DNA of 64,000 nucleotides from Antrihabitans stalactiti. GTDB taxonomy: Bacteria > Actinomycetota > Actinomycetes > Mycobacteriales > Mycobacteriaceae. Where the stretch lies: assembly GCF_012932915.1 (NCBI RefSeq), contig NZ_VCQU01000001.1:992001-1056000 (forward strand), given 5' to 3'. Numbering within the stretch: position 1 is the first letter of the stretch; every line of letters starts with the position of its first letter. This document shows positions 16,585 through 37,005 of this stretch, in pieces. Position numbers and translations under genes: made by a program. The notes beneath the pieces were generated by a model, which had not been told where the DNA came from, ran no database searches, and saw nothing but the letters and a program-made list of their open reading frames with translations.

Positions 16585-17403
16585 ATGCGTACCTCTATCT
16601 GGATTCGCCAGCACTTGGCTGCATTTCGCGCTCTGCTCGTGCTGACCGTCATCACCGGAATCGCCTACCCGCTCGCAGTTTTCGCGGTCGCGCAGCTGCC
16701 CGGCCTGCACGACAAGGCCGAAGGATCGATAGTGGAGGTGAACGGGAAGACCGTCGGCAGCACGCTGATCGGGCAGTCGTTCACCGACAGTTCGGGCACG
16801 CCGCGCAAGCAGTACTTTCAGAGCCGTCCGTCCGCCGCTGGCGACGGCTACGACCCGACGTCGACCAGCGCCAGCAACCTCGGACCGGAGAACCTGAGCC
16901 TGCTGAACACGGTGTGTGCGCGCGGTCTCGCCATCGGAAAGCTAGAGAGCGTCGACGGTTCCCGTCCGTTCTGCACCGCTGATGGGGTCGGGGCGGTGCT
17001 GTCGGTAACTCCGACGAAGGTGGTCAGCGTGAACGAGCCGTGCCCCGCCACGCCGTTCATCGATACCTACGACGGTGTGAAGGTGGAATGCGCAGTCGAC
17101 GGCGAGGACTACTCCGCCGGTCGGATCGTGCCGATCCGTGGCAACGCTCCGGCGGACCCGATGGTCCCGGCAGACGCGGTCACGGCGAGCGGCAGCGGGC
17201 TCGACCCACACATTTCGCCCGCATACGCCGAGCTGCAGGCCAAGCGCGTCGCCGCTGCGCGCGGGATCTCGGTCGACCAGGTCCGCGACGCTATCCGCCA
17301 CAACACGCAAGGTCGCGCCTTTGGCTTCATCGGCGAGCCGACCGTCAATGTGCTGCTGTTGAACATCGAGCTCGACCGGGACTACCCCTACACCCCCTCG
17401 TGA
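16585..17403 (+). CDS. kdpC: KdpC, K+-ATPase accessory subunit with an enlarged middle region
   Basis: This is the single-span subunit that increases pump ATP affinity. The N-terminal helix (LLVLTVITGIAYPLAVFAVAQL), then GSTLIGQSF, YFQSRPSAAGDGYDPTSTSASNLGP, and the C-terminal DPHISPAYAELQAKRVAAARG / GRAFGFIGEPTVNVLLLNIELD are typical. At 272 aa it is about 60-80 residues longer than E. coli KdpC. The extra material (about 110-195) contains three Cys residues and likely forms an external insert. The last codons (Pro-Ser-stop) are inside palindrome A1. Confidence 0.95.
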   Translation: MRTSIWIRQHLAAFRALLVLTVITGIAYPLAVFAVAQLPGLHDKAEGSIVEVNGKTVGSTLIGQSFTDSSGTPRKQYFQSRPSAAGDGYDPTSTSASNLGPENLSLLNTVCARGLAIGKLESVDGSRPFCTADGVGAVLSVTPTKVVSVNEPCPATPFIDTYDGVKVECAVDGEDYSAGRIVPIRGNAPADPMVPADAVTASGSGLDPHISPAYAELQAKRVAAARGISVDQVRDAIRHNTQGRAFGFIGEPTVNVLLLNIELDRDYPYTPS

Positions 17404-17444
17404 GTCTTTTTGGAGTCCCTGGACTCCAAAAAGACTCACGAGGG
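17395..17444. repeat. Palindromic element family A, copy 1
   Basis: This is a perfect 50-bp inverted repeat: 24-bp arms beginning CCCTCGTGAGTC then TTTTTGGAGTCC, with CT at the centre. It sits between the convergent kdpC and glycosyltransferase genes and contains both stop codons (17401-17403 and 17436-17438), each read as CCC TCG TGA. Copies at 22978 and 36956. The A/T run lies inside the stem, so it is not a standard intrinsic terminator. Confidence 0.9.
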
Positions 17445-18734
17445 TGGGGCTATGACTCTCGCTGCTTCCATCCGATCAGCGATGGTCTGCACTGCCGACA
17501 GGCCGGCAATCTCGGCTTGGATCTCGCGGGCCCGCTCGCGATAGGCAGGCGTTCCCAGGATCTCCTGGACTGCCGCTCTGATGGCAGCGGGCTTCGGCCG
17601 ACCGGTCTTCATGTTGATGCCGGTTCCCGACCATGCCACCCGCTGCGCAACCTCCGGCTTGTCTTCGCTGTCGCCCGCGACGATCAACGGGACGCCGTGG
17701 GCGAGCGCGAACTGCGCGCCGCCATAGCCGCCATTGGTTACCATGACATCGACCTTCGGCAGCAGCAGCGAGTACGGAACGAATTCCGTGACAAGGGCAT
17801 TCGCCGGGAGGTCGCCGGGTAGGTCCGTAATAGGCCTGCCGCCCGTCGCCACGACAACCAGGACGTCTTCGTCGGCAAGCGCTCGAATCGTCGGTACGAC
17901 GACGCGGTTGAGGTCGAAATTGTCGATCGTTCCTTGCGTGACATGAACGACTGGCTTGCCTGAATCGAGTTCGTGCCACCACTCCGGCGGGGTGAACTCG
18001 GCGGAATCGGCAGTGGGCAGAATCGGCCCGACGAATTCGAAGCCCTCGGGCAGATCGGTCCGCGGGTACTCGAAACTGGGCGCGGTGAGTTGCAGGAAGC
18101 CGTCACCCAGCTTCGGACCGTCCATGAAGAACACGGGGAGGTCGACGCCGAGGTCGCGCAGCTTTCGTTCGAAGATCTTCTGACTCGAACCGAAGACGAC
18201 CTTCTGGACCAGGAAACGCAACGCGCGGTCGCGGACTCGGCCGAGGACCGTGGTGGACGGCAGCAACCCCGGACCGAACGGCGGCACATCGTCACTCGAC
18301 AAAATCAACGGCAGCACACCGCAGAAGATCACCGGTGGACGTGCCGCGGCCGGGTCGCGCAGCATCGCGAATGCCCCGCCGAACGCGGTCTCGGCGAGAA
18401 CCGCGTCGACATCGCCGTCCGCCAGGAGTTCGAGCAAAACGTGTGCCTGCCCGGTCAATCCGCCGGCAAAGATGTTGTCGACATCGAATTTCAGCTTCGC
18501 GATGCCCTTCTTCTTTGCACGTCCTGGAAAAGCGCCGTCCACGTCGCGGTCGTCGTAATCGCTTTCTTCAGGCAAGGCAACGGGCTCGATACCCGCCCCG
18601 GCGATCGCGTCGTAGAAACGCGAGCCGGTGAGCAGACGGACCCGATGGCCACGACGAACGAGTTCGGCGCCGATCGTGATCATCGGAGCAACGTGCCCGT
18701 ACACGGGCGAGCTGCACAGGACGAAATTGGCCAT
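17436..18734 (-). CDS. MGT/UGT-type glycosyltransferase (GT1 family)
   Basis: This is a GT-B fold glycosyltransferase of the macrolide/UDP-glucuronosyl type. The N-terminal acceptor half opens with FVLCSSPVYGHVAPMITIGAELVRRGHRVRLLTG. The C-terminal half has HVTQGTIDNFD, EFVPYSLLLPKVDVMVTNGGYGGAQFALAHGVPLIVAG and EDKPEVAQRVAWSGTG, the nucleotide-sugar binding pattern, although the usual HGG is NGG here. The start at 18734 (MANFVLCSSP) gives 432 aa, the normal size. It lies 32 bp downstream of a mycolyltransferase gene. Acceptor and sugar are unknown. The end of the gene is within palindrome A1. Confidence 0.85.
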   Translation of the reverse strand: MANFVLCSSPVYGHVAPMITIGAELVRRGHRVRLLTGSRFYDAIAGAGIEPVALPEESDYDDRDVDGAFPGRAKKKGIAKLKFDVDNIFAGGLTGQAHVLLELLADGDVDAVLAETAFGGAFAMLRDPAAARPPVIFCGVLPLILSSDDVPPFGPGLLPSTTVLGRVRDRALRFLVQKVVFGSSQKIFERKLRDLGVDLPVFFMDGPKLGDGFLQLTAPSFEYPRTDLPEGFEFVGPILPTADSAEFTPPEWWHELDSGKPVVHVTQGTIDNFDLNRVVVPTIRALADEDVLVVVATGGRPITDLPGDLPANALVTEFVPYSLLLPKVDVMVTNGGYGGAQFALAHGVPLIVAGDSEDKPEVAQRVAWSGTGINMKTGRPKPAAIRAAVQEILGTPAYRERAREIQAEIAGLSAVQTIADRMEAARVIAPPS

Positions 18735-18766
18735 GGCAAAGGGTACGTGCGGACGACCGATCCGGT

Positions 18767-19774
18767 TCACTCGCCGAGTGCGGGCCCGAGAACCGTCCAC
18801 GACGAACGCAAAGCGTCCTGCCAGTACAGCCAGGAATGCGTGCCTGCGGGGCGGAAATCGAAGGTCGCTGGAATCCCGAGTGCGGCGAGACGGTCGGCGA
18901 AAAGGTGGCTGCAGAAGTTGGAGGCAGCTTCGATGCCCCCGCCCACAACGATCTGGTCGGGCAGCGGTGGCGCGTCGGGTGGCTTCTTCGCATCGAGCGC
19001 CTCGTAGGGACCAGGCACGCCGCTCCCGCTGTACACAAATATCGCGACTCCGCGCAGTCGGTCGGCGTTGATGTACGGATCATGACGGATCCATTCGGGA
19101 TCGCCGACCGGCCCCCACATGTTCACGGTGTTGCCGCGCCCGACCCCTTCGACGATGGCACGGACGACGTTCTGGCCGATGGGATCGCTCGTCTTCGCAC
19201 AGCCGCTGAAGGACGCGACCGCCGTGTAGAGACCGGGTGCCTGGACCGCGAAATCGAGTACCGAGCCCCCCGACATCGATAGACCACCGATCGCGCTTAC
19301 GCCGTTCGTACCCAACGCCGAATCGACGACGGAGGGAAGTTCTTTGGTCATGAACGTCTGCCATTTGTTACGACCGAGCACGGGATCGTCGTGTCGCCAG
19401 TCGGTGTAATAGCTCAGGTAACCGCCGGTCGGTATGACAACGTTGACATTCTTGTCTGCAAAGAAGCTCGCAATGTCGGTCTGGCGCAGCCAGTTCGCCC
19501 CGTCCTCGCCGGCGCCTGCTCCGTTCAGCAAATACAGCGTCGGACGCGGCTGGGAAGTATCGGCGGGGCGCAGCACCTGGAGCGGAATGACCTTGTCCAT
19601 CGACGGCGAGTAGACGTCGACTTCCCATCGCGTGTCGCTGACCTTGTCGATGTGATCCAATCGCCCGGTCGCAGACGCGGATTCGGGGTCGCCACTCGCG
19701 ATCGGCGAAACGGAGAAAGCCAGGATGACGGCTGCGATGAGCACGGTAAGGCGCACAAGGTTATCCGGTCTCAT
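18767..19774 (-). CDS. Mycolyltransferase (Ag85-like alpha/beta hydrolase), secreted
   Basis: This is a secreted esterase-fold enzyme of the antigen 85 type, which moves mycolic acids between trehalose and cell-wall acceptors. A signal sequence (VRLTVLIAAVILAFSVSPIASG) is followed by YLLNGAGAGEDGANWLRQTD, VVIPTGGYLSYYTDW, the nucleophile elbow IGGLSMSGGSVLDFA (catalytic Ser), FSGCAK, and a late GTHSWLYWQD with the catalytic His. This supports a mycolate-producing host. ATG at 19774 is used; 19786 or GTG 19792 are alternatives. It is followed by the glycosyltransferase. Confidence 0.88.
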   Translation of the reverse strand: MRPDNLVRLTVLIAAVILAFSVSPIASGDPESASATGRLDHIDKVSDTRWEVDVYSPSMDKVIPLQVLRPADTSQPRPTLYLLNGAGAGEDGANWLRQTDIASFFADKNVNVVIPTGGYLSYYTDWRHDDPVLGRNKWQTFMTKELPSVVDSALGTNGVSAIGGLSMSGGSVLDFAVQAPGLYTAVASFSGCAKTSDPIGQNVVRAIVEGVGRGNTVNMWGPVGDPEWIRHDPYINADRLRGVAIFVYSGSGVPGPYEALDAKKPPDAPPLPDQIVVGGGIEAASNFCSHLFADRLAALGIPATFDFRPAGTHSWLYWQDALRSSWTVLGPALGE

Positions 19775-19842
19775 TGCGCGCAACATTCCCACAACGTCTG
19801 ACGGTTCGCAAACCGATCGACGCTCCGCTGACTCCGCAGGAA

Positions 19843-20427
19843 TCAGTAGTGCTTGCTGTACTTGATGAAGGCGACTCCGTCGGTGAATACGCGACTGGAC
19901 GTCACGCGGAACCGCAGCGGGTCGGGAAACGCCGGACCGTGCCCGAACAACGGCCGGCCCGCGCCCAACACGATCGGGTAGAGCTTGAGCATGATTTGAT
20001 CGATCTCAGGCAACAGGTGGCTCGCAAGTTCGCCGCCGCCGCACAGCCAGATGCCGAGCCCGCGCGTTTCAGCCTTGAGCGCACGGACCTTCCCCAACAC
20101 ATCGGAACCGATCAGTTCCAAGCCTGGGTCAGGGCTTTCGGTCATCGTCGTCGACACGACGTACTGGCGCAGGTGCGAGTACGGGCTCGTCGTACCGGTA
20201 CGGACGCCGAAATCGTGCGTCTTGCGTCCCATCAGGACGGTGTCGAACGTGTTGTTCTCGTTGTCTATGCCCAGTGCCTCACGCACTTTCGAAGGCAAGG
20301 TCTCCGGGTACTGCGCAGTGATAGCGGGACCGTGATCGCCGCCGACTGGAAAGAAATCGACAGAGCCGTCTTCGGCTGCGATGAACCCGTCGATCGTGGA
20401 TGCAACGTAATACGTGAGCTTGCGCAT
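19843..20427 (-). CDS. RibD C-terminal / dihydrofolate-reductase-like protein
   Basis: This 194-aa protein has a DHFR-like fold of the RibD C-terminal group. Key stretches are MRKLTYYVASTIDGFIA, FDTVLMGRKTHDFG, LRQYVVSTTM, and GLGIWLCGGGELASHLLPEIDQIMLKLYPIVLGAGRPLF, the NADPH-site pattern. ATG at 20427 follows a strong AAGGAGG. Such stand-alone proteins are often oxidoreductases of unknown substrate; a role in riboflavin synthesis is not implied. It lies between mutM and the mycolyltransferase, both on the same strand. Confidence 0.88.
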   Translation of the reverse strand: MRKLTYYVASTIDGFIAAEDGSVDFFPVGGDHGPAITAQYPETLPSKVREALGIDNENNTFDTVLMGRKTHDFGVRTGTTSPYSHLRQYVVSTTMTESPDPGLELIGSDVLGKVRALKAETRGLGIWLCGGGELASHLLPEIDQIMLKLYPIVLGAGRPLFGHGPAFPDPLRFRVTSSRVFTDGVAFIKYSKHY

Positions 20428-20461
20428 CGAAACCTCCTTCAACCGAACACGACGTTAGCCG

Positions 20462-21325
20462 CTAACCGGCCCCACGCGGGCGAGGTTGGCATCGCGGGCA
20501 TGAGAACGACGAGCGATTCATGAATTTCTCGCGCCGCATCGGCGCTCCGCACCGCAGACACGGCTCGTCTTGACGACCGTACGCCGCGAGTGAGCGGGAG
20601 AAGTAGCCCGACTGGCCGTTGACGTTGACGTACAACGAGTCGAACGATGTTCCGCCTTGGGCAAGGGCTTCGCGCATGACGTTCCCGACGTCGCCGAGCA
20701 AGCCGCGCAGCCGGGGTCGCGTGAGCGCGTCGGTTGTGCGAGCGCCGTGAATCTTGGCCCGCCACAAGGCTTCGTCGGCGTATATGTTGCCGACGCCGGA
20801 CACGACAGTCTGATCGAGCAGCGCCCGTTTGATCTCGGTTCGCTTGGCGCGCAGCACGTCGACACGTGACTCGACGTCGAACAGCGGGTCGAGCGGATCG
20901 CGCGCGATATGGCTGACCGGCTCCGGAACGATCGAACCGTCGACCTCCACAAGTGGGGCGACCGCCCAGCCGCCGAAGGTCCGTTGGTCGACGAATCGAA
21001 GCTGAAAGCCGTTGTCCAGCACCGCAACCACGCGAGCGTGCTTTTCGCGCTCGACATCGGGCGACTGCACAAGCATCTGACCGCTCATCCCCAGGTGCAC
21101 GACGAGCGAATCGTCGGATCCCCCGAGGGTCAGCCAGAGAAACTTGCCGCGACGATTGGCGCTGTCGATTCGGCGGCCAGCCAGGCGGGCGATCAGATCG
21201 GAGGGTCCGGGCACGTGCCGCCGGATTGCCCGCGGATGCAGGACCTCGATCGATTCGAATGTGGCACCGACGACGTGCGCGTCCAGGCCGCGTCGAACGA
21301 CTTCGACCTCAGGTAGTTCAGGCAT
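20462..21325 (-). CDS. mutM: Formamidopyrimidine-DNA glycosylase (Fpg)
   Basis: This base-excision repair enzyme removes oxidised purines such as 8-oxoguanine. The N-terminus [13 protein letters not shown] gives the catalytic Pro and Glu, HLGMSGQML and [13 protein letters not shown] are helix-two-turn-helix elements, and the C-terminal zinc finger is [10 protein letters not shown] then [10 protein letters not shown]. The length (287 aa) is normal. It lies 21 bp after rnc, as in mycobacteria. Confidence 0.97.
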
Positions 21326-21346
21326 GTCGAAGCGGTCGGATCAGCG

Positions 21347-22075: not shown

Positions 22076-22095
22076 AAGCTGCCCGCGTCGAAGAA

Positions 22096-22278
22096 CTAGA
22101 CGACCGACGTAACCTGTCGGCCCTTGTAGGTGCCGCAATTCGGGCACGCGGTGTGGGGCAGCGTCTTCTCACCACAACCACGGTTCGGGCACGTGATGAG
22201 CGTGGGAGCAGTGGTCTTCCACTGGCTACGCCGCGACCTCGTGTTGGAACGCGACATTCTCCGCTTCGGAACGGCCAC
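22096..22278 (-). CDS. rpmF: 50S ribosomal protein L32, zinc-binding type
   Basis: L32 is 60 aa and starts [20 protein letters not shown]. The zinc-ribbon cysteines are intact (CPNRGCG and CPNCG), so this is the Zn-containing form. It is 2 bp after yceD and 20 bp ahead of rnc, a conserved actinobacterial arrangement. Confidence 0.98.
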
Positions 22279-22280
22279 GA

Positions 22281-22889
22281 CTAATTCTCCTTGACTTCTT
22301 GATCAACAAGTTCGGTATCGGCGGGTTCTGCACTGATCTTCTCGGCGAGCCCAGCCCAGCGAGGGTCCAGTATCTCATGGCTGTGGCCGGAACCGGCAAT
22401 CGCCAGGCGAACACCACATTCGGCGCACAACCCCAGGCAATCGGGACTGCACAACGGCTGCAACGGCAACTCGAGTCCGACGACGTCGATCACGACAGGT
22501 TCCAGATCGATGTGATCGTCGACAACCCGGTAGATCTCGTCTTCCTCGGTCGTCTGTTCGGTCGTGCTGTCCGGGTAAGCGAACAGCTCCGTCAGCCGCA
22601 GGTCGATCCTGTCGTCGAACGGCTCGAGACAACGCGAGCACTCGCCGACGACGTCCGCCCGGACCGATCCAGTAACGAGAACGCCTTCGGAAACCGCTTC
22701 GAGCCGAAGATCCAACTCGACGTCGGTCCCCTGCTCAATGGCGATCAGGTCGAGCCCGATCCGCGACTCGGCAACGATCGTGCGGGAAATCTCGCGCATC
22801 GAACCGGCCCGACGACCGAGCGTGCGGGTATCGAGCACAAACCCCGCATCCGTCATTCGACGGTTCGATCGGCTGACATGGGCTGGCAT
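22281..22889 (-). CDS. YceD/DUF177 family protein
   Basis: This is a DUF177 protein, conserved upstream of rpmF and in some bacteria linked to 23S rRNA metabolism. It shows [30 protein letters not shown], the CSRCLEPF motif, LFAYPDS, and a C-terminal cluster [16 protein letters not shown]. The start is uncertain: MPAHVSR at 22889 is used, with 22898 (MCVM) and 22856 (MTDAG) also possible. Translation further upstream would read into palindrome A2, which is not plausible. rpmF follows after 2 bp. Confidence 0.9.
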
Positions 22890-22977
22890 GACACACATAC
22901 TTTCGACGCTCGGGCGGTTTGGACAACCACTCCACGATACGCGAAGGCCGGTGAGGCGCCAAAACGACGACCAACCG

Positions 22978-23021
22978 TCGTGAGTCTTTTTGGAGTCCCT
23001 GGACTCCAAAAAGACTCACGA
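22978..23021. repeat. Palindromic element family A, copy 2
   Basis: This is a 44-bp perfect inverted repeat with the same TCGTGAGTC / TTTTTGGAGTCC arm and CT centre as copy 1. The outermost three bases are changed on the left side (CCG for CCC), so the perfect stem is shorter. It lies between sepIVA and yceD on the same strand, where it would form on the shared transcript or end it. Confidence 0.88.
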
Positions 23022-23029
23022 GGGGGCTG

Positions 23030-23800
23030 TTAGCGGCGTTCCGCCGAGCGACGGCCCGGCTTGTATTCGGACGCGTAGTCGGGGACGCCGGTGCCGGTGC
23101 GCAGCTGCTGACGGCCACGACCGACGGAACGAATCGTCCCGCTCAGGAACTCTTCGAACTCGGCGAGCTTCGTGTCGACGTACAGATCGCTCTCGGCACG
23201 AAGGCGGTCCGACTCGGCATGTGCCGAATCGATGACGCGAGCCGATTCGGCGTGGGCCGCCTGCACGACCTCTGCCTGTGAGATGAGGCGGTCCTGCTCG
23301 GCCTTACCCTCGGCGACGGCGAGATCGTAGGACGCCTTGCCTGCTTCGATCATGCGATCCGCCTCGCCGCGAGCCCGCGAGGTGAGCGACTCGTACTCAC
23401 GCTTGCCGCTCATGACCGTCTGGTCCGCCTGCGCGTGCGCATCCGCGACCAACTGCTCGGCGTGCGAGCGCGCCTCGGCAACCATGCGGTCTGCCTGCGC
23501 TTTTGCGTCGGCCAAAATGCGGTCGGCGTCGTCTCGTGCCGATTCGACGGTGTGGAGGGCCTCGGCATTTGCGCCGTTGACCGTCTTGTCCGCCGCGTTT
23601 CGCGCATCGGTGACCAGCTTGTCGCGATGATCCAGCACGTCCTGCGCGTCGTCGAGCTCGCCAGGCAGCGCCTCACGAACGTCGTCGAGCAGGTCTAGGA
23701 CATCGCCTCGCGGGACCACACAACTACGAGTCGGTGGAATACCGCGCGCCTCTTCGACGATCGCAACCAACTCGTCGAGTGCCTCGAATACCCGGTACAC
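23030..23800 (-). CDS. sepIVA: SepIVA / DivIVA-domain coiled-coil cell-division protein
   Basis: This is a coiled-coil protein like mycobacterial SepIVA (Rv2927c), involved in septation and polar membrane organisation. The opening YRVFEALDELVAIVEEARG and the RGDVLDLLDDVREALPGELDDAQDVLD segment match it closely. A long Ala/Glu/Asp-rich coiled coil (about 60-215) follows, then LAEFEEFLSGTIRSVGRGRQQLRTG. GTG at 23800 is chosen because homology begins exactly there; the upstream ATG adds ten unrelated residues. coaD lies upstream, with 105 bp of featureless sequence between (23801-23905). Confidence 0.9.
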   Translation of the reverse strand: MYRVFEALDELVAIVEEARGIPPTRSCVVPRGDVLDLLDDVREALPGELDDAQDVLDHRDKLVTDARNAADKTVNGANAEALHTVESARDDADRILADAKAQADRMVAEARSHAEQLVADAHAQADQTVMSGKREYESLTSRARGEADRMIEAGKASYDLAVAEGKAEQDRLISQAEVVQAAHAESARVIDSAHAESDRLRAESDLYVDTKLAEFEEFLSGTIRSVGRGRQQLRTGTGVPDYASEYKPGRRSAERR

Positions 23801-23905
23801 AGCAGACCCCAATTCCTCGATTGCACACACGATCGGAATCCAGTTTGCCCGCCGCGCGGTTCACCACGCCGTTGTACACGCCGTGGTTAGGCAAGTGTTA
23901 TCCGC

Positions 23906-24394: not shown

Positions 24395-24439
24395 GGCTTC
24401 AGACGCTATCAGGGTGAACACTCCCCCGATTCGTCGCGC

Positions 24440-26759: not shown

Positions 26760-29700
26760 TTATTCTGGGCTGGTTTCCTCACCGACAGTCACCACCGCGA
26801 GGAGATCGCCACCCTCGACCTGCTGGACCTTGGAAATCGCGACCCGACTGACCGTTCCACTGCGCGGCGCAGTGATCGCAGCCTCCATCTTCATAGCTTC
26901 GATGGTTGCGACCGCATCGCCCGCCTTGATCTTGTCACCCACCGCAATCGAAAGCGTGACGACGCCGGCGAACGGCGCAGGAATATGCGCCGGGTTGGTC
27001 TTGTCCGCCTTCTCCGCAGCAGGAACCTCGGACTCGATCGACCGGTCGCGCACCGACACCGGACGCAACTGGCCGTTGATGATGCACATGACGGTCCGCA
27101 TGCCCCGCTCGTCGGGCTCGGAGATCGCCTCCAGCCCGATCAGCAGCTCGACACCCTGCGAGAGCTCGACCCGGTGTTCCTCGCCACGACGCAGTCCGTA
27201 GAAGAACTGATTGGCCGAGAGTCCCGACGTGTCGCCGTACTTCTCGCGGTGCGCCTCGAATTCCTTTGTGGGACCCGGGAACAGAAGACGATTGAGCGTG
27301 GCCTGCCGCTCCTTCGACGTACCGGCCAACCCTGCGTCGTCCGCAGCGGTCAACGGTGTCACCGGCTTTGCCTCCGAGCGCCCTTCCAGTGCCCGCGTGC
27401 GGAACGGTTCCGGCCAGCCGCCCGCAGGCGTGCCCAGCTCGCCGCGCAAGAAGCCGATCACCGAATCCGGGATGTCGTAGGCGCCGGGGTTGGCCGCGAA
27501 ATCGTCGACGTCGACACCGGTTCCCACGAGCGCGAGCGCAAGATCACCGACGACCTTCGACGACGGCGTCACCTTCACCAACCGACCCAGCAGCCGGTCA
27601 GCTGCGGCGTACTTCGCCTCGACCTCCTCGAACCGGTCGCCGAGCCCGAGCGCGATCGCCTGCTGGCGAAGGTTGGACAGCTGACCACCCGGAATCTCGT
27701 GGGTGTACACCCGACCGGTCGGCGCGGGAAGCCCGGATTCGAAGGGCGCGTACACCTTCCGCAGCGCCTCCCAGTACGGCTCCAAGTCGCAGACGGCTTG
27801 CAGATTCAGCCCGGTGTCGCGTTCGGTATGCGCAGCGGCGGCCACGATCGCCGACAGCGCGGGCTGGCTCGTCGTGCCCGCCATCGCCGCGCTCGCACCG
27901 TCGACCGCGTCCGCTCCCGCCTGCCACGCAGCGAAGTACGTGGCGAGCTGACCACCCGGAGTGTCGTGCGTGTGCACGTGCACCGGGAGGTCGAAGTTAC
28001 TACGCAACGCCGTGACCAGCGTGGTTGCCGCAGGCGCCCGCAGTAGTCCGGCCATGTCCTTGATCGCGAGCACGTGCGCGCCCGCGTCGACGATCTGCTC
28101 GGCCAGCTTCAGGTAGTAGTCCAGCGTGTACAGATTCTCCGCCGGATTGGCAAGGTCACCGGTGTAGCTCATCGCCACTTCGGCTATGGCAGTACCGGTT
28201 TCGCGAACCGCGTCGATCGCCGGGCGCATCTGGTCGACGTTGTTCAGCGCGTCGAAGATCCTGAAGATGTCGATACCGGTATCGGTCGCCTCGGAAACGA
28301 ATGCGCGCGTGACCTTTTCTGGATACGGCGTGTAGCCGACCGTGTTGCGGCCGCGGAGCAACATCTGCAGGCAGATGTTCGGCACCGCTTCACGCAGGGC
28401 TGCGAGACGCTCCCATGGGTCTTCGTGCAGGAACCGAAGGGCCACATCGTAGGTCGCGCCGCCCCATGCCTCGATGGACAGCAACTCCGGCGTCAGATGC
28501 GCGACGTGCCCGGCGACGCCGAGCAGGCCTGTCGTCCGGACCCGGGTCGCCAGCAACGACTGGTGTGCGTCACGGAACGTCGTGTCGGTGACACCGAGAG
28601 CCTTCTGCTCGCGCAGTGCCTTCGCGAAGCCTTCCGGGCCCAACTCGAGCAACCGCTGCCGCGAACCGTTCGGCGGGGCGACCGTGAGGTCGATGGCGGG
28701 CAGCTTGTCTTTCGGATAGACCTTCGACGGCCGAGTGCCGTGCGGCTTGTTGACCGTGACGTCTGCAAGGTAGTTCAGAATCTTCGTGCCACGGTCTGCC
28801 GAACCACGTTGGGTCAGCAGCTGTGGCCGCTCCTCGATGAACGACGTGGTGACGTTTCCGGCCCCGAAGTCCTCGTCGTCGAGAACCGCCTGTAGGAACG
28901 GGATGTTCGTCGATACTCCGCGGATGCGGAACTCCGCCAACGCGCGCCGCGCCCTGGCAACAGCTGTCGGGAAGTCCCGGCCACGACAGGTCAGTTTGAC
29001 CAGCATCGAGTCGAAGTACGCCGCGACATCGGCGCCCAAGTTCGCGCCGCCGTCGAGCCGGATTCCGGCACCACCGGGCGACCGGTACGCGGTGATGCGG
29101 CCGGTGTCGGGCCGGAACCCGTTCGCGGGATCCTCGGTCGTGATGCGGCACTGCAAAGCCGCGCCGCGCAAAACGATCGCGTCCTGGGTCAGCCCCAGGT
29201 CGGCGAGCGACTCCCCCGACGCGATGCGAAGCTGCGACTGAACGAGATCGACATCGGTGACCTCCTCGGTCACTGTGTGCTCCACCTGGATTCGTGGATT
29301 CATCTCGATGAAGACGTGGTTGCCGCGCTTGTCGAGCAGGAACTCGACAGTCCCTGCGCAGGTGTAGCCGATCTGCTTAGCGAAAGCGACCGCATCGGCG
29401 CAGATCTTTGCCCGCACCTCGGACGGCAGATTCGGAGCAGGCGCCAACTCGATGACCTTCTGGTGGCGGCGCTGCACCGAGCAGTCGCGCTCGTAGAGGT
29501 GAATCACGTTGCCCTGCTGGTCTGCCAGGATCTGCACTTCGATGTGGCGCGGATCGATGACCGCCTGCTCGAGGAAGACGGTGGGATCACCGAAAGCCGA
29601 TTCGGCTTCGCGCGCCGCAGCCTCGATCGACTCCTTCAGTTGTTCACGTTCGGCCACGCGCCGCATGCCGCGACCGCCACCACCGGCGACCGCTTTGACG

Positions 29701-30167
29701 AACAACGGGAACGTCATGTCCTCGGCAGCGGCAAGCAGCTCGTCGACATCTGCAGACGGCTCCGACGACGCGAGCACCGGAAGGCCGGCTGCCTTCGCTG
29801 CGGCAATGGCGCGCGCCTTGTTGCCGGTCAGCTCGAGAATCTCCGCCGACGGCCCGACGAAGGTGATGCCTTCGGCCGCACATGCTGCGGCGAGGTCCGG
29901 GTTCTCGGAAAGAAAACCGTATCCGGGGTACACCGCGTCTGCCCCGGAACTCTTTGCCGCAGAGACGATCTCCGAGATCGACAGGTACGCCCGCACCGGG
30001 TGACCCGTCTCGCCGATCTGGTAGCTCTCGTCGGCCTTCAGCCTGTGCAGCGAGTTTCGATCCTCGTACGGAAAGACAGCGACCGTACCCGCACCGAGTT
30101 CGTACGAGGCGCGAAACGCACGGATAGCAATTTCGCCGCGATTGGCTACCAAAACTTTGGAGAACAT
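26760..30167 (-). CDS. pyc: Pyruvate carboxylase
   Basis: This biotin enzyme makes oxaloacetate from pyruvate and bicarbonate. Domains in order: biotin carboxylase (about 1-455; VLVANRGEIAIRAFRAS, GGGGRGMR ATP loop, EMNPRIQVEHTVTEEVT), carboxyltransferase (about 530-800; DTTFRDAHQSLLATRVRT, HTHDTPGG metal site), and the C-terminal biotin carrier with EAMKMEA at about 1093-1099. The length (1135 aa) is normal for the single-chain enzyme. The start MFSKVLVANRG is clear. The 88 bp to recG hold nothing obvious. Confidence 0.97.
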   Translation of the reverse strand: MFSKVLVANRGEIAIRAFRASYELGAGTVAVFPYEDRNSLHRLKADESYQIGETGHPVRAYLSISEIVSAAKSSGADAVYPGYGFLSENPDLAAACAAEGITFVGPSAEILELTGNKARAIAAAKAAGLPVLASSEPSADVDELLAAAEDMTFPLFVKAVAGGGGRGMRRVAEREQLKESIEAAAREAESAFGDPTVFLEQAVIDPRHIEVQILADQQGNVIHLYERDCSVQRRHQKVIELAPAPNLPSEVRAKICADAVAFAKQIGYTCAGTVEFLLDKRGNHVFIEMNPRIQVEHTVTEEVTDVDLVQSQLRIASGESLADLGLTQDAIVLRGAALQCRITTEDPANGFRPDTGRITAYRSPGGAGIRLDGGANLGADVAAYFDSMLVKLTCRGRDFPTAVARARRALAEFRIRGVSTNIPFLQAVLDDEDFGAGNVTTSFIEERPQLLTQRGSADRGTKILNYLADVTVNKPHGTRPSKVYPKDKLPAIDLTVAPPNGSRQRLLELGPEGFAKALREQKALGVTDTTFRDAHQSLLATRVRTTGLLGVAGHVAHLTPELLSIEAWGGATYDVALRFLHEDPWERLAALREAVPNICLQMLLRGRNTVGYTPYPEKVTRAFVSEATDTGIDIFRIFDALNNVDQMRPAIDAVRETGTAIAEVAMSYTGDLANPAENLYTLDYYLKLAEQIVDAGAHVLAIKDMAGLLRAPAATTLVTALRSNFDLPVHVHTHDTPGGQLATYFAAWQAGADAVDGASAAMAGTTSQPALSAIVAAAAHTERDTGLNLQAVCDLEPYWEALRKVYAPFESGLPAPTGRVYTHEIPGGQLSNLRQQAIALGLGDRFEEVEAKYAAADRLLGRLVKVTPSSKVVGDLALALVGTGVDVDDFAANPGAYDIPDSVIGFLRGELGTPAGGWPEPFRTRALEGRSEAKPVTPLTAADDAGLAGTSKERQATLNRLLFPGPTKEFEAHREKYGDTSGLSANQFFYGLRRGEEHRVELSQGVELLIGLEAISEPDERGMRTVMCIINGQLRPVSVRDRSIESEVPAAEKADKTNPAHIPAPFAGVVTLSIAVGDKIKAGDAVATIEAMKMEAAITAPRSGTVSRVAISKVQQVEGGDLLAVVTVGEETSPE

Positions 30168-32487: not shown

Positions 32488-32495
32488 CCCAACCC

Positions 32496-34124
32496 CTACT
32501 CGACGCCGAGTTGAAGGAGATCACCCTGCTGATCTCCGGAATAGATCATGACTTCGACGCCCTGGTGGTTCTTTTCCACATGCGCGGCAAGATGATTCAC
32601 GAGCTCGACGGTCGCGTGCGCCCCGACCAGCATCGTCACGAGCTCGCCGCCGAGGCCGAGAACACGGTCTAGCAGCTGGGTCCCGGCAAGTTGAACATCG
32701 CGCTCGATCACAACGACCTCGTGACCGATCAAACCGAGACCGTCGCCCGCCTCACACGTGCCGACGAGCGTGAGAGCGCGACCGGGGGCGACTCGCAGCG
32801 AGCCCCAGCGCGTGCTCGACGCCGCTTCCGACATGGCGAATGCATCATCGACGGCGATCCGCATCGAGTCGTGCACGGCGACCGCCGCGAGGCCTTGCAC
32901 CATCGATGACGTCGGAAGCAGCAACACGTCCTTGGACGCATCACGTGCGGCGACACCGACCGCCACCAACTCCTGGGCGGACAACGCGCCGTTCGGCAAC
33001 ACGAGGACCTCACGGTTGTCCATCGCTCGGATTGCGGCAAGCAGCGTGGGCGCGCTGATCGGTTGATCGCAGCGCAGGACGGTCACGCCTTCGCTTTCGT
33101 ACAACTGCGCTGCGCCGTCGCCCTCGACAACCGCGAGGAGGCCGCGGTCGGCCAACCCGGCCAGTGGCTTCGGGAGGGACCGCTGGGCGTCGGCGCGGTC
33201 GAGTGCGAAGCAGTTGACGCGAACTTGATGAATGCGACCGGACGCAATTCCCGCCTCGATCGCAGCACCTGCATCGCGGCAGTGGACGTGTGCGGACCAG
33301 CACGCGCCGCCGTCGCTGACGATGATCACCGAGTCGCCGATTTCGCCGAGCCGCTTGCGCAGAGCCGATATCCGCAGCTCGTCGGTGTCGCTGAGCAGAT
33401 ACATCACTTCGTAGTCCTGCACGACCGTCGGGTCCAGACTTCGAGCGTCGTCGACGGGAGCGGCGTCGTGCGACCGAACGAAGCGTGGCCGGTGCGGCGC
33501 CTCGCCCGTGATCACCGTCACGAGTGCGTCGAGCAGAACGACCAGCCCGAGACCGCCCGCATCGACCGCGCCCGCCTCCGCGAGCACTGCGAGCTGGCCG
33601 GGCGTCCGCTCCAGGGCGTCGACAGCAGCGTCCGCGGCGGCAGTGGCGATTTCGGCAATCGAGGCGTCGGCCTCGCATCGACGCGCGGCTGCGCCCGCCT
33701 GGTCGAGCACGGTGACGATCGTTCCTTCGACCGGCACACTGACGGCGCTGCGCACAAGGACGGCGGCAGCATCGAGGGCGTCCCGCAGCGCGGTGGCGTC
33801 GAGCGGACCGTTCACAGTCGAGTCGGCGATACCGCGCATGACCTGCGAAAGAATGATTCCGGAATTGCCGCGCGCGCCCGTGGTCGCGCCTCTGGCCATT
33901 GCCGTCGCAACATCATGAGCGCTCGTCGCGTCCGGTGTGAGTGCCTCGACAGCCGCGACCGCGGAGCGCATGGTGAACAGGAGGTTGGTACCCGTGTCGG
34001 AATCGGGGATCGGGAACACGTTGAGGTCGTTGATCTCCTCGCAGTGCGCGACGAGCCCGTCCACACATGCGTGTGCCCATCGTGTGACGGCGGCACCGTC
34101 CAGCGCATTCAGGGCCTCGACCAC
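32496..34124 (-). CDS. DAK2-domain (FakA-like) protein
   Basis: The N-terminal DAK2 kinase domain (about 1-200) has NDLNVFPIPDSDTGTNLLFTM with the Mg-binding Asp triad, and ARGNSGIILSQVMRG. The C-terminal half, with VMYLLSDTD and RQ-rich linkers, resembles FakA/DegV-type proteins that phosphorylate fatty acids with a fatty-acid-binding partner. No FakB/DegV gene is next to it here. The GTG start at 34124 is within a GCGAGGTGG context. recG follows; rpmB is divergent across 189 bp (34125-34313), which should contain both promoters. Confidence 0.87.
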   Translation of the reverse strand: MVEALNALDGAAVTRWAHACVDGLVAHCEEINDLNVFPIPDSDTGTNLLFTMRSAVAAVEALTPDATSAHDVATAMARGATTGARGNSGIILSQVMRGIADSTVNGPLDATALRDALDAAAVLVRSAVSVPVEGTIVTVLDQAGAAARRCEADASIAEIATAAADAAVDALERTPGQLAVLAEAGAVDAGGLGLVVLLDALVTVITGEAPHRPRFVRSHDAAPVDDARSLDPTVVQDYEVMYLLSDTDELRISALRKRLGEIGDSVIIVSDGGACWSAHVHCRDAGAAIEAGIASGRIHQVRVNCFALDRADAQRSLPKPLAGLADRGLLAVVEGDGAAQLYESEGVTVLRCDQPISAPTLLAAIRAMDNREVLVLPNGALSAQELVAVGVAARDASKDVLLLPTSSMVQGLAAVAVHDSMRIAVDDAFAMSEAASSTRWGSLRVAPGRALTLVGTCEAGDGLGLIGHEVVVIERDVQLAGTQLLDRVLGLGGELVTMLVGAHATVELVNHLAAHVEKNHQGVEVMIYSGDQQGDLLQLGVE

Positions 34125-34313
34125 CTCGCCACATTAACGAAGCCGACCGACGGCCGCCGCGTGCGTTCGCCGGTTTGGTGGATCCGGCGGCGTGCGGCTA
34201 CTCTTGCAGGGTTGCCTCGCGCAGGGTGGGAGTTGGTTCCCCGGTGCTCGCAGGCCACCTAGGCTCGATCCAAGACACGCTAGATCCATCCAAGATATGA
34301 GGAGTTCGCGACT

Positions 34314-34505
34314 ATGGCTGCCGTCTGTGACGTTTGCGCCAAGGGCCCCGGCTTCGGTAAGTCGGTCTCGCACTCGCACCGGCGCACAAACCGTCGCTGG
34401 AACCCGAACATTCAGACTGTTCGCGCCCAGGTTGCCCCAGGCAACACCAAGCGACTGAATGTGTGCACATCCTGCTTGAAGGCGGGCAAGGTCGTTCGCG
34501 GCTGA
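34314..34505 (+). CDS. rpmB: 50S ribosomal protein L28, zinc-binding type
   Basis: The 63-aa product starts [20 protein letters not shown]. Both CxxC pairs (CDVC and CTSC) are present, so this is the Zn-containing form, unlike the Cys-free paralogue used under zinc starvation in many actinobacteria. ATG 34314 follows ATGAGGAG about 10 nt upstream. A hairpin follows at 34530. Confidence 0.97.
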
Positions 34506-34529
34506 CCCGTTCTTTTCGCTCGATCCCTG

Positions 34530-34555
34530 TGGCCTGACGCTTTCGCGTCAGGCCA
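34530..34555 (+). terminator. Hairpin terminator after rpmB
   Basis: GGCCTGACGC-TTTC-GCGTCAGGCC is a perfect 10-bp stem, extended by one T:A pair, 24 bp after the rpmB stop. There is no long T-run (ATAGTTGT follows), so it may be a weak or U-less terminator as is common in actinobacteria. Confidence 0.65.
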
Positions 34556-34582
34556 TAGTTGTCTTCGGTCCATAGTTGTCCC

Positions 34583-35056
34583 ATGTGGCAGATCCGCGAA
34601 CTGACCGCCGACCTCATCAGAAGCGCCGCCGAATGCCACATCGCATCGTGGCAGGAGTCCTATCGCGGCATAGTCCCGGACCACGTTCTCGACGCATTCG
34701 ACATCGACGAACGCGCCGCGATGTGGGAGCGCCGACTTGCCGACCATCCCCACGCAACACAGGTTGCGGTCGAAGATGGCGCAGTCATCGGTTTCGCCAC
34801 TGCCAGTCCGCACGAATTGCATGCGTTGTATGTCCGCCGCTATCGGCACGGTTCCGGCGTCGCGGATGAATTGATCGGTGCCGCGATCGGTGCTCGACCG
34901 TGTTCGTTGTGGGTGTTCGAGGCCAATCCGCGCGCGCAAGCGTTCTATCGGAAACACGGATTCGTACCCGCTGGGGAGCGGAAGATAGAGCCGTTCAGCG
35001 GAGCTATGGAGATCCGAATGGTCCGATTCAACGACGACGATAAGCTTGAGCAGTGA
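34583..35056 (+). CDS. GNAT family N-acetyltransferase
   Basis: This 157-aa protein has the GNAT fold: AAECHIASWQESYRGIVPDHVL, VAVEDGAVIGFATAS, the acetyl-CoA region LHALYVRRYRHGSGVADELIGAAI, and the closing LWVFEANPRAQAFYRKHGFVPAGE. The RYRHGSG loop replaces the usual Q/RxxGxG/A. ATG 34583 (MWQIRELTADL) is preferred over an ATG eight codons upstream. Its stop overlaps the GTG start of the enoyl-CoA hydratase (GTGA), so they are co-translated. The substrate is unknown. Confidence 0.85.
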   Translation: MWQIRELTADLIRSAAECHIASWQESYRGIVPDHVLDAFDIDERAAMWERRLADHPHATQVAVEDGAVIGFATASPHELHALYVRRYRHGSGVADELIGAAIGARPCSLWVFEANPRAQAFYRKHGFVPAGERKIEPFSGAMEIRMVRFNDDDKLEQ

Positions 35057-35838
35057 CGACCACCGAAACCCGAGAGTACGTGCAGATCTCCGACGGAATC
35101 TTGCAGATCACCATCTCGACGGCTGCCAAAGGCACCTCGCTCGATTTCGCGGGAATCAACCAAGGCACGGCGGCGCTGCAGGCGATCGACGCCAGCATCG
35201 GTGCGGTGTTGCTGGTGGGGGCAGGTGGCAATTTCTGTGCAGGCGGTGACGTCCGTGCGTTCTCCCAGGCGCCGGAGCGGGGGGCGTATGTCGGCGGATT
35301 AGCGGCCGACCTGCACGCCTTCGTTCGCGCTTTGGAGGCCGCACCGGTGCCGGTCGTCGTCGGAGTCCACGGCTGGGCCGCCGGTGCCGGCATGAGCCTG
35401 GTCTGCGCCGCCGATATCGCGATCGGCGGTCCAGGCACTCGCTTGAAGCCGGCGTACACCGGAATCGGGTTCACACCGGACGGCGGTATGTCGTGGACCT
35501 TGCCACGCATCGTCGGCGTGTCCCGGGCAAAAGAGATCATCCTGACGAACGCGACCGTGACCGGCGAGGAAGCCGTGCAGCTCGGCATCCTGAGCCGGAT
35601 CGTCGAAGACGCAGAAGTCGGTGCGGAGGCTGCCAAGGTTGCGCGTGCTATCAGTGCGGGGCCACGGTCCGCGTATGCCGGCATCAGAACGCTGCTCGCG
35701 GCGTCGCCCGACAGCACATTGTCCGAGCAACTCGACCTCGAGGCGGAGGCTATTTCACGGTCCGCCGACAGCCCGACCGGGCGCGAGGGAGTCGATGCAT
35801 TCGTCGAAAAGCGTGAGCCACATTGGCAACTGAGTTGA
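35053..35838 (+). CDS. Enoyl-CoA hydratase/isomerase family protein
   Basis: This crotonase-fold enzyme has the CoA-binding oxyanion motifs VGAGGNFCAGGDVRAFSQ and HGWAAGAGMSLVCAADIAIGG at about 55-72 and 105-125, and the active-site region TPDGGMSWTLPRIVG. The second catalytic acid lies near GFTPDGG, fitting the family broadly without fixing hydratase or isomerase activity. The GTG start overlaps the GNAT stop, and the end overlaps the start of the SARP-FHA gene by 16 nt. Confidence 0.9.
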   Translation: MTTTETREYVQISDGILQITISTAAKGTSLDFAGINQGTAALQAIDASIGAVLLVGAGGNFCAGGDVRAFSQAPERGAYVGGLAADLHAFVRALEAAPVPVVVGVHGWAAGAGMSLVCAADIAIGGPGTRLKPAYTGIGFTPDGGMSWTLPRIVGVSRAKEIILTNATVTGEEAVQLGILSRIVEDAEVGAEAAKVARAISAGPRSAYAGIRTLLAASPDSTLSEQLDLEAEAISRSADSPTGREGVDAFVEKREPHWQLS

Positions 35839-36950
35839 CCCCCCAACGCCTGGGGTTCGAAGTACTCGGGCCCGTGCAGGTCACGATCGACGACGTCCCG
35901 CAGAACCTCGGAGGCGTCAAGCCCCGTGCCGTGCTGGCGAAGCTCATCACTCAGCGCAACCAGGTCGTGTCGGCGGAAGCGCTCGCGGACGCCGCATGGG
36001 ACGGCAACCCGCCTGCCATGTTTCGCAACCACTTGCAGGTGGCGATTGCCAAGCTGCGCAAGGTGTTACAGACGGCGGGGTTCGACCCGATGCGCGTGCT
36101 CGCTACTGCGCCGCCCGGGTACCGCCTCGTCGTCGAGGAACAGCAATGCGACGCTGCGCGGTTTGCGGCGCTGAAGAACACCGGTCATCAGCACGCCGCC
36201 GCAGGACGTTACGAGGACGCTAGTGCGGCGTTCAGCGCCGCGCTCGCCGAGTGGAAGGGTCCGGCGCTGGCGGACCTACGCGGTCTTCGTTTCGCCGACG
36301 ACTACGCCGCACCCATCGACGACGAGCGACTCGCGACGCAGATCGTGCGCGCCGAAGCCGAAATCGCTTGTGGACGGCCGACGTTGGTGCTCAACGAGCT
36401 TTCGTCGCTCGCAGGCATACACCCGCTGCACGAACCGCTGTGGCAGCAGTTGATCGCTGCGCTCTACCTTGCCAATAGACCGTCCGACGCGCTGGAAGCC
36501 TGCCGTCGACTGCGCCGGGCCCTCGACGACGAACTCGCAGTCGACCCGAGCCCCGCGATCCAAGACCTCGAGTTGCGAATCCTTCGCCAAGAGCCGCTGG
36601 AGAGTAAGGCGCCATCGACGTCGCAGGACCTCGGCAAGACCGTTGTGAAGCACCGAAACACCCGTCGGGCACAGCTTCGGGACCGTTCAGGCCAAGTGAC
36701 ACCGATCGGCGACGGCACTCTCCGCATCGGCCGCGCACCGGACAACAACGTCGTTCTCCGCGACGACCAGGTCAGCCGCTACCACGCCGCGATCGTCCAA
36801 AGCCCTGCAGGCATCTTGATCCGCGACCTGTGGTCGTCCAACGGCGTGTACGTCCGCGGCAACCAGGTCTTCGAAAGCGCGATGCTCAACAACGGCGACG
36901 AAATCGAAATCGGCAGCACAACTTTCGTCTTCGAGCTGCTGGAGGCCTAA
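35823..36950 (+). CDS. EmbR-like transcriptional regulator (SARP DNA-binding, BTAD and FHA domains)
   Basis: This resembles mycobacterial EmbR. The N-terminal winged-helix SARP domain (about 10-100) has VLAKLITQRNQVVSAEALADAAW. The BTAD helical repeats (about 105-260) include HEPLWQQLIAALYLANRPSDALEACRRLRRALDDELAVDPSP. The C-terminal FHA domain (about 290-375) has LRIGRAPDNNVVLRDDQVSRYHAAI and DLWSSNGVYVRG, the phosphothreonine pocket, implying control by a Ser/Thr kinase. The TTG start at 35823 overlaps the hydratase end; TTG 35835 is an alternative. No embCAB genes are nearby, so the target is unknown. Confidence 0.88.
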   Translation: MATELTPQRLGFEVLGPVQVTIDDVPQNLGGVKPRAVLAKLITQRNQVVSAEALADAAWDGNPPAMFRNHLQVAIAKLRKVLQTAGFDPMRVLATAPPGYRLVVEEQQCDAARFAALKNTGHQHAAAGRYEDASAAFSAALAEWKGPALADLRGLRFADDYAAPIDDERLATQIVRAEAEIACGRPTLVLNELSSLAGIHPLHEPLWQQLIAALYLANRPSDALEACRRLRRALDDELAVDPSPAIQDLELRILRQEPLESKAPSTSQDLGKTVVKHRNTRRAQLRDRSGQVTPIGDGTLRIGRAPDNNVVLRDDQVSRYHAAIVQSPAGILIRDLWSSNGVYVRGNQVFESAMLNNGDEIEIGSTTFVFELLEA

Positions 36951-36955
36951 CTCAC

Positions 36956-37005
36956 CCCTCGTGAGTCTTTTTGGAGTCTATAGACTCCAAAAAGACTCAC
37001 GAGGG
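36956..37005. repeat. Palindromic element family A, copy 3
   Basis: This is a perfect 50-bp palindrome with the same arms as copy 1. Its innermost pair is changed on both sides: GGAGTC-T-AT-A-GACTCC here versus GGAGTC-C-CT-G-GACTCC in copies 1 and 2. A compensatory C:G to T:A change preserves pairing, which argues for selection on the folded form. It lies between the convergent SARP-FHA and membrane-protein genes and includes the Pro-Ser-stop end of the latter. Confidence 0.9.

What the first reader, a model, noticed from the sequence alone, without database searches (positions are those of the whole stretch)
17395..37005. Family A palindromes: three near-identical long inverted repeats with a compensatory base-pair change
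Copies at 17395-17444, 22978-23021 and 36956-37005 share nearly the whole 44-50 bp. Copies 1 and 2 have an inner C:G pair where copy 3 has T:A, so pairing is kept while sequence changes. That is covariation for a folded or cruciform structure. The A/T-run is inside the stem, so a normal intrinsic terminator is unlikely. They may be a mobile palindromic element, a nuclease or RNA-stability signal, or a protein-binding site.
Basis: seen in the sequence. Interest (0 to 1): 0.72.

Follow-up and report, generated by a model that had tools for sequence, protein, structure and literature searches.

The report
Dispersed hairpin repeats at gene ends
The three palindromes are copies of a short DNA hairpin scattered about 180 times through this bacterial genome, where the sampled copies lie mostly just behind the ends of genes, and related bacteria carry their own versions with the same frame but different inner letters, as if a tiny mobile element had become a two-way gene-end signal.

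Summary
Confirmed, and much larger than reported. The window's genome (G000) has 181 copies at up to 3 mismatches; the reversed-pattern control finds 0. In 1.42 Mb sampled, half-site CGTGAGTCTTTT lies inside copies 79 times, elsewhere 0. Of 46 sampled copies 20 lie between convergent genes, 24 tandem, 1 divergent, 0 inside genes, 1 at a contig edge, after re-checking three gene calls.

The frame CGTGAGT-N28-ACTCACG occurs in 34 of 301 family genomes, G000 included, with other, still mostly paired, inner stems. At the one clean orthologous junction 3 of 3 congeners lack the palindrome. PF01797 (REP transposase) is absent from G000 and 8 of 10 other genomes.

In congener G001, and partly in other genera, two small unlike hairpins flank it, often with the stop codon at their foot.

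Best reading: a REP/REPIN-like dispersed palindrome without known transposase, doubling as a U-tract-less two-way gene-end hairpin. Mobility and termination are inferred; an RNA-pairing test was null.

The parts
17395..17444 (.). Family A palindrome, copy 1, between convergent KdpC-domain (+) and glycosyltransferase-like (-) genes; both ORFs stop at the TGA inside the CGTGAG box
22975..23024 (.). Family A palindrome, copy 2, in the tandem (-) junction between the YceD-domain gene and the gene at 23030-23830; not found at the orthologous junction in 3 of 3 congeners
36953..37008 (.). Family A palindrome, copy 3 (TATA centre), between a convergent BTAD/FHA gene (+) and a gene (-) whose stop is the TGA in the box
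9285..9332 (.). Family B palindrome (GTGCGCG box, other inner stem), one of 75 pattern matches in the genome; the corresponding sequence shown for congener G002 has none
16585..17403 (+). KdpC-domain gene (PF02669) ending in palindrome copy 1
17436..18800 (-). Glycosyltransferase-like gene (PF06722) ending in palindrome copy 1
22281..23009 (-). YceD-domain gene (PF02620); this longest ORF starts inside the palindrome, my script puts the start near 22898
23030..23830 (-). Gene whose 3' end lies just beside palindrome copy 2 (only a sub-threshold Pfam match)
35823..36950 (+). BTAD/FHA regulator-like gene ending just before copy 3
36997..37575 (-). Gene with no Pfam match, ending inside palindrome copy 3

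Best explanation
The palindromes belong to a dispersed repeat family of the REP/REPIN type: a hairpin of nearly fixed length (42 nt from CGTGAGT to ACTCACG, 46 nt with the usual outer CT/AG) that has multiplied separately in different lineages of this actinobacterial family and settles at the 3' ends of genes. SHOWN by sequence: copy number, constant box and length, different but mostly paired inner stems in different genera, gene-end location of the sampled copies, presence in some lineages only, no downstream T-tract, no REP-transposase domain in G000. INFERRED: (1) spread by copying and insertion, by an enzyme not identified; (2) once at a gene end the element serves as a two-way end signal: its TGA, or in relatives a stop codon at the foot of a flanking small hairpin, closes the reading frame, and the long hairpin stalls or releases RNA polymerase, or marks the stable 3' end left after Rho termination and exonuclease trimming, for both convergent genes.
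For: 181 copies, reversed control 0; half-site never alone, 0 against 79; 20 convergent, 24 tandem, 1 divergent of 45 flanked copies although divergent gaps hold 39% of intergenic bases (p about 1e-8, or 9e-7 if all three first calls stand); 58 of 62 neighbouring stop codons within -5..+38 nt; tandem copies hug the upstream stop, 40 of 46 in the upstream half, median 13.5 nt against 44 nt to the next start. Other genera with different inner stems: 40 convergent, 9 tandem, 2 divergent, 1 inside of the 52 loci fetched. Exact N28 spacing in 354 of 369 matches in eight relatives when N18-30 was allowed. Cross-genus pairing: 148 cells changed on both sides against 40.7 shuffled, 95.7% of cells paired against 72.3%. 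Absence at the orthologous YceD junction in 3 of 3 congeners. Gene stop codons exactly 14 nt before the box (37) or inside it (31) among 128 stop sides in G001, G062, G081, G275 and two G074 loci. Predicted RNA fold -42.5 kcal/mol for 50 nt.
Against: No RNA data. The wobble test on sense strands of tandem copies gives no sign that RNA pairing is selected (15 G.U against 12 A.C, p=0.70; by copy 11 against 6, p=0.33). 70 of 103 copies have one or more pairs that are not Watson-Crick. No target-site duplication, no mobilising enzyme found, and only one clean orthologous junction could be compared, at 74-80% DNA identity, so insertion is inferred, not seen. The small flanking hairpins are missing in G000 itself (family A 4 of 74 sides, shuffled 7). 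Six of 115 copies in three congeners were called divergent and five inside genes by my simple gene caller; those in G001 were not checked one by one. Hairpins near stops in general are not T-rich here either (5 or more T on 7 of 47, against 2 of 92 sides of family A), so the lack of a T-tract sets the family apart only weakly.
Confidence: 0.55

Rival explanations
1. A purely selfish dispersed repeat. It inserts anywhere; copies in genes and promoters are purged, so mostly gene-end copies remain, with no gene-end function.
For: Lineage-specific amplification and patchy distribution, 34 of 301 genomes; null wobble test; absence at the orthologous junction in congeners.
Against: Purging alone does not readily explain why tandem copies hug the upstream stop rather than spreading over the gap (40 of 46), why stop codons sit at set distances (14 nt, -5 nt), or why different inner stems in other genera choose the same places.
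Confidence: 0.2
2. Bidirectional U-tract-less ('I-shaped') terminators that arose in place and are kept alike within each genome by selection or gene conversion, without any mobile step.
For: Position within 50 nt of the stop and lack of a U-tail fit the I-shaped terminators described for mycobacteria (PMC12288462, passages read); compensatory stem changes.
Against: Terminators are expected to conserve structure, not sequence; here 41 copies in one genome are letter-identical outside the four central bases while three congeners lack the hairpin at the same junction. Another hairpin junction in the same stretch (G000x 128523) keeps a hairpin of changing sequence in 4 of 4 species.
Confidence: 0.12
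3. A DNA-level site: a cruciform or a paired binding site for a nucleoid, gyrase or domain-boundary protein, placed at gene ends because supercoils of convergent genes meet there.
For: Near-perfect two-fold symmetry, constant outer box and constant spacing; no strand bias of mismatches.
Against: A plain binding site needs no inner palindromy, yet inner stems change in pairs; tandem gene ends are used about as often as convergent ones in G000.
Confidence: 0.1

Closest known systems
REPINs (REP doublets forming hairpins; PMC3116915, abstract and passages read)
   Same: Symmetrical element with conserved ends, an inner spacer conserved in length and in capacity to pair, frequent compensatory changes, many copies, extragenic; long-hairpin and clover folds are both discussed there. 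G001's copies (small hairpin - palindrome - small hairpin) have a clover-like anatomy.
   Different: No PF01797 match in G000-G003 nor in 5 of 7 other carriers; G000's copies lack the small hairpins; in G001 the two small stems of a copy are mostly unlike (2 of 36 alike, 9.7 expected), whereas REPINs are described as symmetrical.
GTAG- and CGTC-tagged REPs (PMC3733652, abstract and passages read)
   Same: Small high-copy palindromes, mostly between convergent and unidirectional genes, downstream of coding regions; CGTC REPs also lack a known transposase.
   Different: Those carry an unpaired tag at one end; G000 copies are symmetric with mostly paired CCC/GGG continuations. The term search found no Actino-, Nocardia, Rhodococcus, Streptomyces or Gordonia in that paper's main text.
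I-shaped (U-tract-less) mycobacterial terminators (PMC12288462, passages read)
   Same: Hairpin without poly-U within 50 nt of the stop codon.
   Different: Those are defined by structure, not by a shared repeated sequence; whether RNA polymerase stops here is untested. [quoted passage not shown]
Uptake-sequence inverted-pair terminators of Haemophilus and Actinobacillus (PMC5217627, passages read)
   Same: Repeated sequence in inverted pairs at gene 3' ends.
   Different: Uptake sequences are also common singly (recalled, not from a call); here the half-site is never single in the sample (0 against 79).

Membership tests
REP (GTAG/CGTC) | small palindrome in high copy, extragenic | tested here: met
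   181 copies; 0 of 46 inside a gene by the first gene caller; the second caller's two 'inside' calls rest on weak ORFs
REP (GTAG/CGTC) | unpaired GTAG or CGTC tag at one end | tested here: not met
   G000 flanks: CCC and GGG on the two sides. GTAG near the foot in relatives on 35 of 128 stop sides but 2 of 32 non-stop sides, so it follows the stop codon TAG
REP / REPIN | RAYT (Y1 transposase, PF01797) in the genome | tested here: not met
   0 of 4 in G000-G003, control rings in E. coli; 5 of 7 other carriers none, 2 with one partial match each
REPIN | inverted conserved ends, spacer of set length that pairs, compensatory changes | tested here: met
   354 of 369 exact N28; paired changes
REPIN | each end folds into its own small hairpin | tested here: inconclusive
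   G001 88 of 100 sides (shuffled 9), G000 family A 4 of 74 (7), G000 family B 2 of 34 (1), G003 family C 6 of 18 (2); G062 22 of 36 (3.2), G081 11 of 14 (1.6), G275 7 of 24 (1.8), G292 6 of 26 (3.6), G074 4 of 4 (0.6)
Canonical intrinsic terminator | T-tract right after the stem | tested here: not met
   5 or more T in an 8-nt window within 12 nt of the stem on 2 of 92 sides; other hairpins near stops 7 of 47
I-shaped U-less terminator | hairpin within 50 nt of stop, no U-tail | tested here: met
I-shaped U-less terminator | stops transcription | not testable with these tools
   no RNA data
MITE of a DDE transposon | target-site duplication | tested here: not met
   no direct-repeat excess beyond 2.6 of 46 at the offsets tested
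Uptake sequence | many single copies of the half-site | tested here: not met
   0 against 79

The most novel reading that the evidence does not exclude
A RAYT-independent mobile 'gene-end cassette': a three-armed (clover) hairpin whose two side hairpins are kept unlike so that they cannot fully pair with each other, whose side-hairpin length or loop is tuned so that the host gene's stop codon falls at the hairpin foot, in its loop or in the box in whichever reading frame is needed, and which, between convergent genes, ends translation and transcription for both at once. It spreads in several actinobacterial genera by an unknown enzyme acting on folded single-stranded DNA.
Probability: 0.27. 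Interest if true: 0.82.

Novelty: new variant of a known kind. Interest (0 to 1): 0.58.

Why it matters
REP-type elements tagged GTAG are explained by RAYT transposases; a large, lineage-specific palindrome family in genomes without a detectable RAYT asks what copies it. The elements also sit where mycobacteria and their kin, for which a review gives only 2-4% canonical terminators in M. tuberculosis (PMC12288462), need to end transcripts of convergent genes, so they would give a countable set of natural two-way gene ends on which U-less termination can be tested. A seven-base box at a fixed spacing makes the family easy to search. My searches for the letters (20 of 84 papers listed) and for REP/REPIN, palindromic repeats or two-way terminators in these bacteria (several with capped listings) showed no paper that describes it; the library is open-licence only.

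Tried and rejected
Ordinary intrinsic terminator: rejected, hardly any T-tract, and relatives' stems carry A-runs or none. RAYT-driven REP: PF01797 absent from G000-G003 while the control rings in E. coli. MITE with target duplication: none seen. Uptake sequence: no single half-sites in the sample. Plasmid carriage: no match in the plasmid collection. Phage carriage: one viral contig with the outer boxes but a poorly paired inside, not pursued. Rfam: only two tRNAs in the window. RNA-level selection by G.U versus A.C on the sense strand of tandem copies: null, with low power. GTAG tag as in REPs: attractive in G062 and G001, but nearly confined to stop-codon sides. Autonomous element flanked by two copies: genes between neighbouring copies were only listed by position; no common gene was sought by sequence. 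Unlike side hairpins outside G001: 0 of 18 alike, p=0.048; the narrower test, one GCGGC and one other, 12 of 18, p=0.06. Two literature leads read by passage (PMC8355165 on hairpin clusters; PMC5381666 on compensatory change in terminators) did not bear on this family.

Gene calls outside the window come from my own codon-usage scripts, not from a published caller. Three 'divergent' calls in G000 were checked with Pfam and ORF lists, which moved two to tandem; one of these two rests on taking a 24-codon basic ORF as a real gene. The second caller placed 2 of 46 inside genes, both on weak ORFs. In one search only copies with exact boxes were counted (37 of the 46 family A copies) and copies with more than 5 unpaired positions were dropped. 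One search's gap test uses 46 of 54 tandem copies (gap of 30 nt or more). One search's loci are those fetched from the places listed, not a full set: G292 13 of 36, G062 18 of 18, G081 7 of 9, G275 12 of 71, G074 2 of 11 (assigned by order and sequence of the listing); loci L203, L205, L210 and L212 (other handles) were left out, three called convergent and one tandem. My small-hairpin detector accepts perfect stems only, so perfect pairing of those stems is not itself a result.
Full report
1. WHAT IS THERE. The three inverted repeats are present as described. A search of the whole genome in which the window lies (G000, 6.76 Mb, 26 contigs) with CGTGAGTCTTTTTGGAGTC-N4-GACTCCAAAAAGACTCACG found 181 places at up to 3 mismatches and 0 for the pattern read backwards; 41 places have no mismatch. 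The best named relatives of a neighbouring protein (26760-30167, with pyruvate-carboxylase-type Pfam domains) are Nocardia and Rhodococcus at about 84-87% identity; near records may be left out of that list, and no call names the species. In 1.424 Mb of G000 that I sampled, 46 copies occur; the columns of the 42-nt core are all but invariant except one stem pair and the four central bases, and half-site CGTGAGTCTTTT occurs 79 times inside copies and never elsewhere.

2. COVARIATION. Another variable stem pair, 12/29, is (29 against 16.9, 0 of 5000 shuffles). All 12 pairs outside the seven fixed by the search pattern have some two-sided change, but that count alone is not unusual (shuffled 10.3; 54 of 500 reach 12). 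The seven outer pairs were fixed by the search and say nothing. The rows are related, so these shuffles overstate significance.

3. FAMILY IN RELATIVES. With the strict frame CTCGTGAGT-N18..40-ACTCACGAG 10 of 301 genomes of the family match (G000 93 places, G001 106, G292 13, the rest 1-5), reversed control 0 in all. With CGTGAGT-N28-ACTCACG 34 of 301 genomes in 6 of 30 genera match, up to 137 copies; the reversed control matches 8 places in 7 other genomes. In a class-wide draw 5 of 393 match the strict frame, and the three outside the family are poorly paired inside when read by eye. Length is nearly fixed: allowing N18-30, 354 of 369 matches in eight relatives have exactly N28 (one control match, in G168); G074 is the exception (4 of 11). 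Two of three congeners, G002 and G003, have no match, but G003 has about 50 copies of another family (GTGCGCGGTTGG.GAGTC..., 54 pattern matches of which a few are chance, control 3), and G000 has a second family (GTGCGCGAGT.T.ACCCC and near variants, 75 matches, at least one by chance, control 0), to which window 9285-9332 belongs. G000's family A and G003's family share the inner core GAGTCC..GGACTC.

4. WHERE THEY SIT. Of 46 sampled copies in G000 my first gene caller placed 20 between convergent, 22 between tandem and 3 between divergent genes, none inside a gene, 1 at a contig edge. Pfam and ORF lists show two of the three 'divergent' ones to be tandem, one of them only if a 24-codon ORF is a gene, leaving one real case between an NAD(P)-binding-type and a secretory-lipase gene. 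Divergent gaps hold 39% of intergenic bases, so 1 of 45 is far below chance (p about 1e-8; 3 of 45 gives 9e-7). A second caller gave 19 convergent, 22 tandem, 2 divergent, 2 inside, 1 edge. Of 62 neighbouring stops, 58 lie -5 to +38 nt from the box. Over 115 copies of families A, B and C in G000, G001 and G003: 49 convergent, 54 tandem, 6 divergent, 5 inside, 1 edge; 138 of 152 stops within -9..+40; in 46 tandem gaps of 30 nt or more, 40 copies lie in the upstream half (p=3e-7). In five genomes of other genera, the 52 loci fetched from listed places: 40 convergent, 9 tandem, 2 divergent, 1 inside.

5. GAIN IN ONE LINEAGE. In syntenic stretches of G001-G003 (blocks mostly 65-80% DNA identity) only one family A junction of eight in the 224-kb stretch has both neighbours side by side in all three congeners: window 22975-23024. 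None of the three has a hairpin of 9 bp or more there, and G003 aligns across it with a gap at the palindrome. The junction at G000x 163464 has both neighbours in G002 and G003 but 0.7-0.8 kb apart; G003 carries its own family there. By contrast another hairpin junction keeps a hairpin in 4 of 4 species with altered letters (G000x 128523). No target duplication was seen. PF01797, which covers Y1 transposases (RAYTs among them, recalled), is absent from G000-G003 and from 5 of 7 other carriers.

6. A FULLER FORM IN RELATIVES. In G001 88 of 100 sides of the palindrome carry a small perfect hairpin directly beside the box (shuffled 9), in G000 family A only 4 of 74 (shuffled 7). 76 such hairpins on gene-flanking sides have 23 sequences; in the 13-nt class two stem pairs swap orientation (CG 36/GC 21 and GC 32/CG 25) while the detector, which accepts perfect stems only, fixes the pairing. 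The two small stems of one copy are rarely alike: 2 of 36 against 9.7 expected (p=2e-4); outside G001 0 of 18 against 2.4 (p=0.048). Unlike sides cannot fully pair with one another, which favours three separate arms over one long hairpin, or avoids a long perfect palindrome; the data do not tell which. Stop codons fall at preferred places: exactly 14 nt before the box (the foot of a 13-nt hairpin) 37 times, inside the box 31 times, 12 nt before it 10 times, of 128 stop sides; all three frames occur (51, 48, 29). In G001 a stop trinucleotide stands at the hairpin foot on 42 of 57 stop sides and 8 of 19 other sides.

7. HOW IT PROBABLY WORKS. Shown: a repeated, near-symmetric, strongly folding gene-end element without T-tract. 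Inferred: RNA from either side folds into a 20-25-bp hairpin (-42.5 kcal/mol predicted) close behind the stop codon, and this ends or protects the transcript. The review PMC12288462 (passages read) states that mycobacteria use hairpins without poly-U within 50 bp of the stop and that Rho dominates, and its reference list holds contrary work on the need for a U-tract; so intrinsic ending and protection after Rho are both open. My one test for RNA-level selection was null (15 G.U against 12 A.C; by copy 11 against 6), and a process that copies one arm from the other would also give paired changes; covariation alone therefore does not prove an RNA role.

8. COMPARISON. REPINs (PMC3116915, abstract and passages) match in anatomy: conserved inverted ends, spacer conserved in length and pairing capacity, compensatory changes, long-hairpin and clover folds. 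The RAYT test fails here, and G000's copies fail on the end hairpins. GTAG/CGTC REPs (PMC3733652, abstract and passages) match in gene placement and, for CGTC, in lacking an enzyme, but the unpaired end tag is not met. I therefore call it REP/REPIN-like and not a member. Paper searches (listings seen, several capped) showed no description of it.

9. LIMITS. About 21% of G000 was sampled; gene calls are from my own scripts; relatives are unnamed; no expression data. Confidence is high for the family and its placement, moderate for mobility, and about even for a gene-end role.

Noticed in passing
window 42389-42456 and 62592-62653: Two long imperfect palindromes share the core TTGTTCGACGCA..GCGCAATTGCG (one base or two apart between copies), a second kind of repeated inverted repeat in the window.
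   Followed up: no
window 55107-55138 and 58657-58690: The same perfect hairpin AAGCTCCCTGACCGAGATCGGTCAGGGAGCTT occurs twice 3.5 kb apart, the second next to two tRNA genes (58696-58768 and 58838-58909, minus strand); perhaps a duplicated terminator or an island boundary.
   Followed up: no
window 9285-9332 and G000 genome: Second palindrome family (GTGCGCG box, 40 nt from box to box), 75 pattern matches in G000, in the sample also mostly at gene ends (8 convergent, 8 tandem, 1 inside of 17).
   Followed up: partly
G003 genome, e.g. C1:82871-82910: About 50 copies of a third family, GTGCGCGGTTGG.GAGTC....GACTC.CCAACCGCGCAC, whose inner core equals that of G000's family A although the outer arms differ: arms look modular.
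   Followed up: partly
L215-L229, L251-L282 (G001): Composite form: stop codon, small hairpin, 46-nt palindrome, usually unlike small hairpin.
   Followed up: yes
L201, L207, L294, L303, L326: In other genera a TGA stands in the loop of the small hairpin beside the box (such as GC-TGA-CGC), by reading the listing.
   Followed up: no
L230 29-74 (viral contig IMGVR_UViG_3300044736_000010): Outer boxes CTCGTGAGTG/CACTCACGAG at the right distance but with a poorly paired inside, near the end of the stretch held for a contig classed as viral.
   Followed up: no
G000:C21:250002-250043: A family A copy sits directly behind an ordinary-looking hairpin with a T-rich tail that follows a 24-codon basic ORF.
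   Followed up: partly
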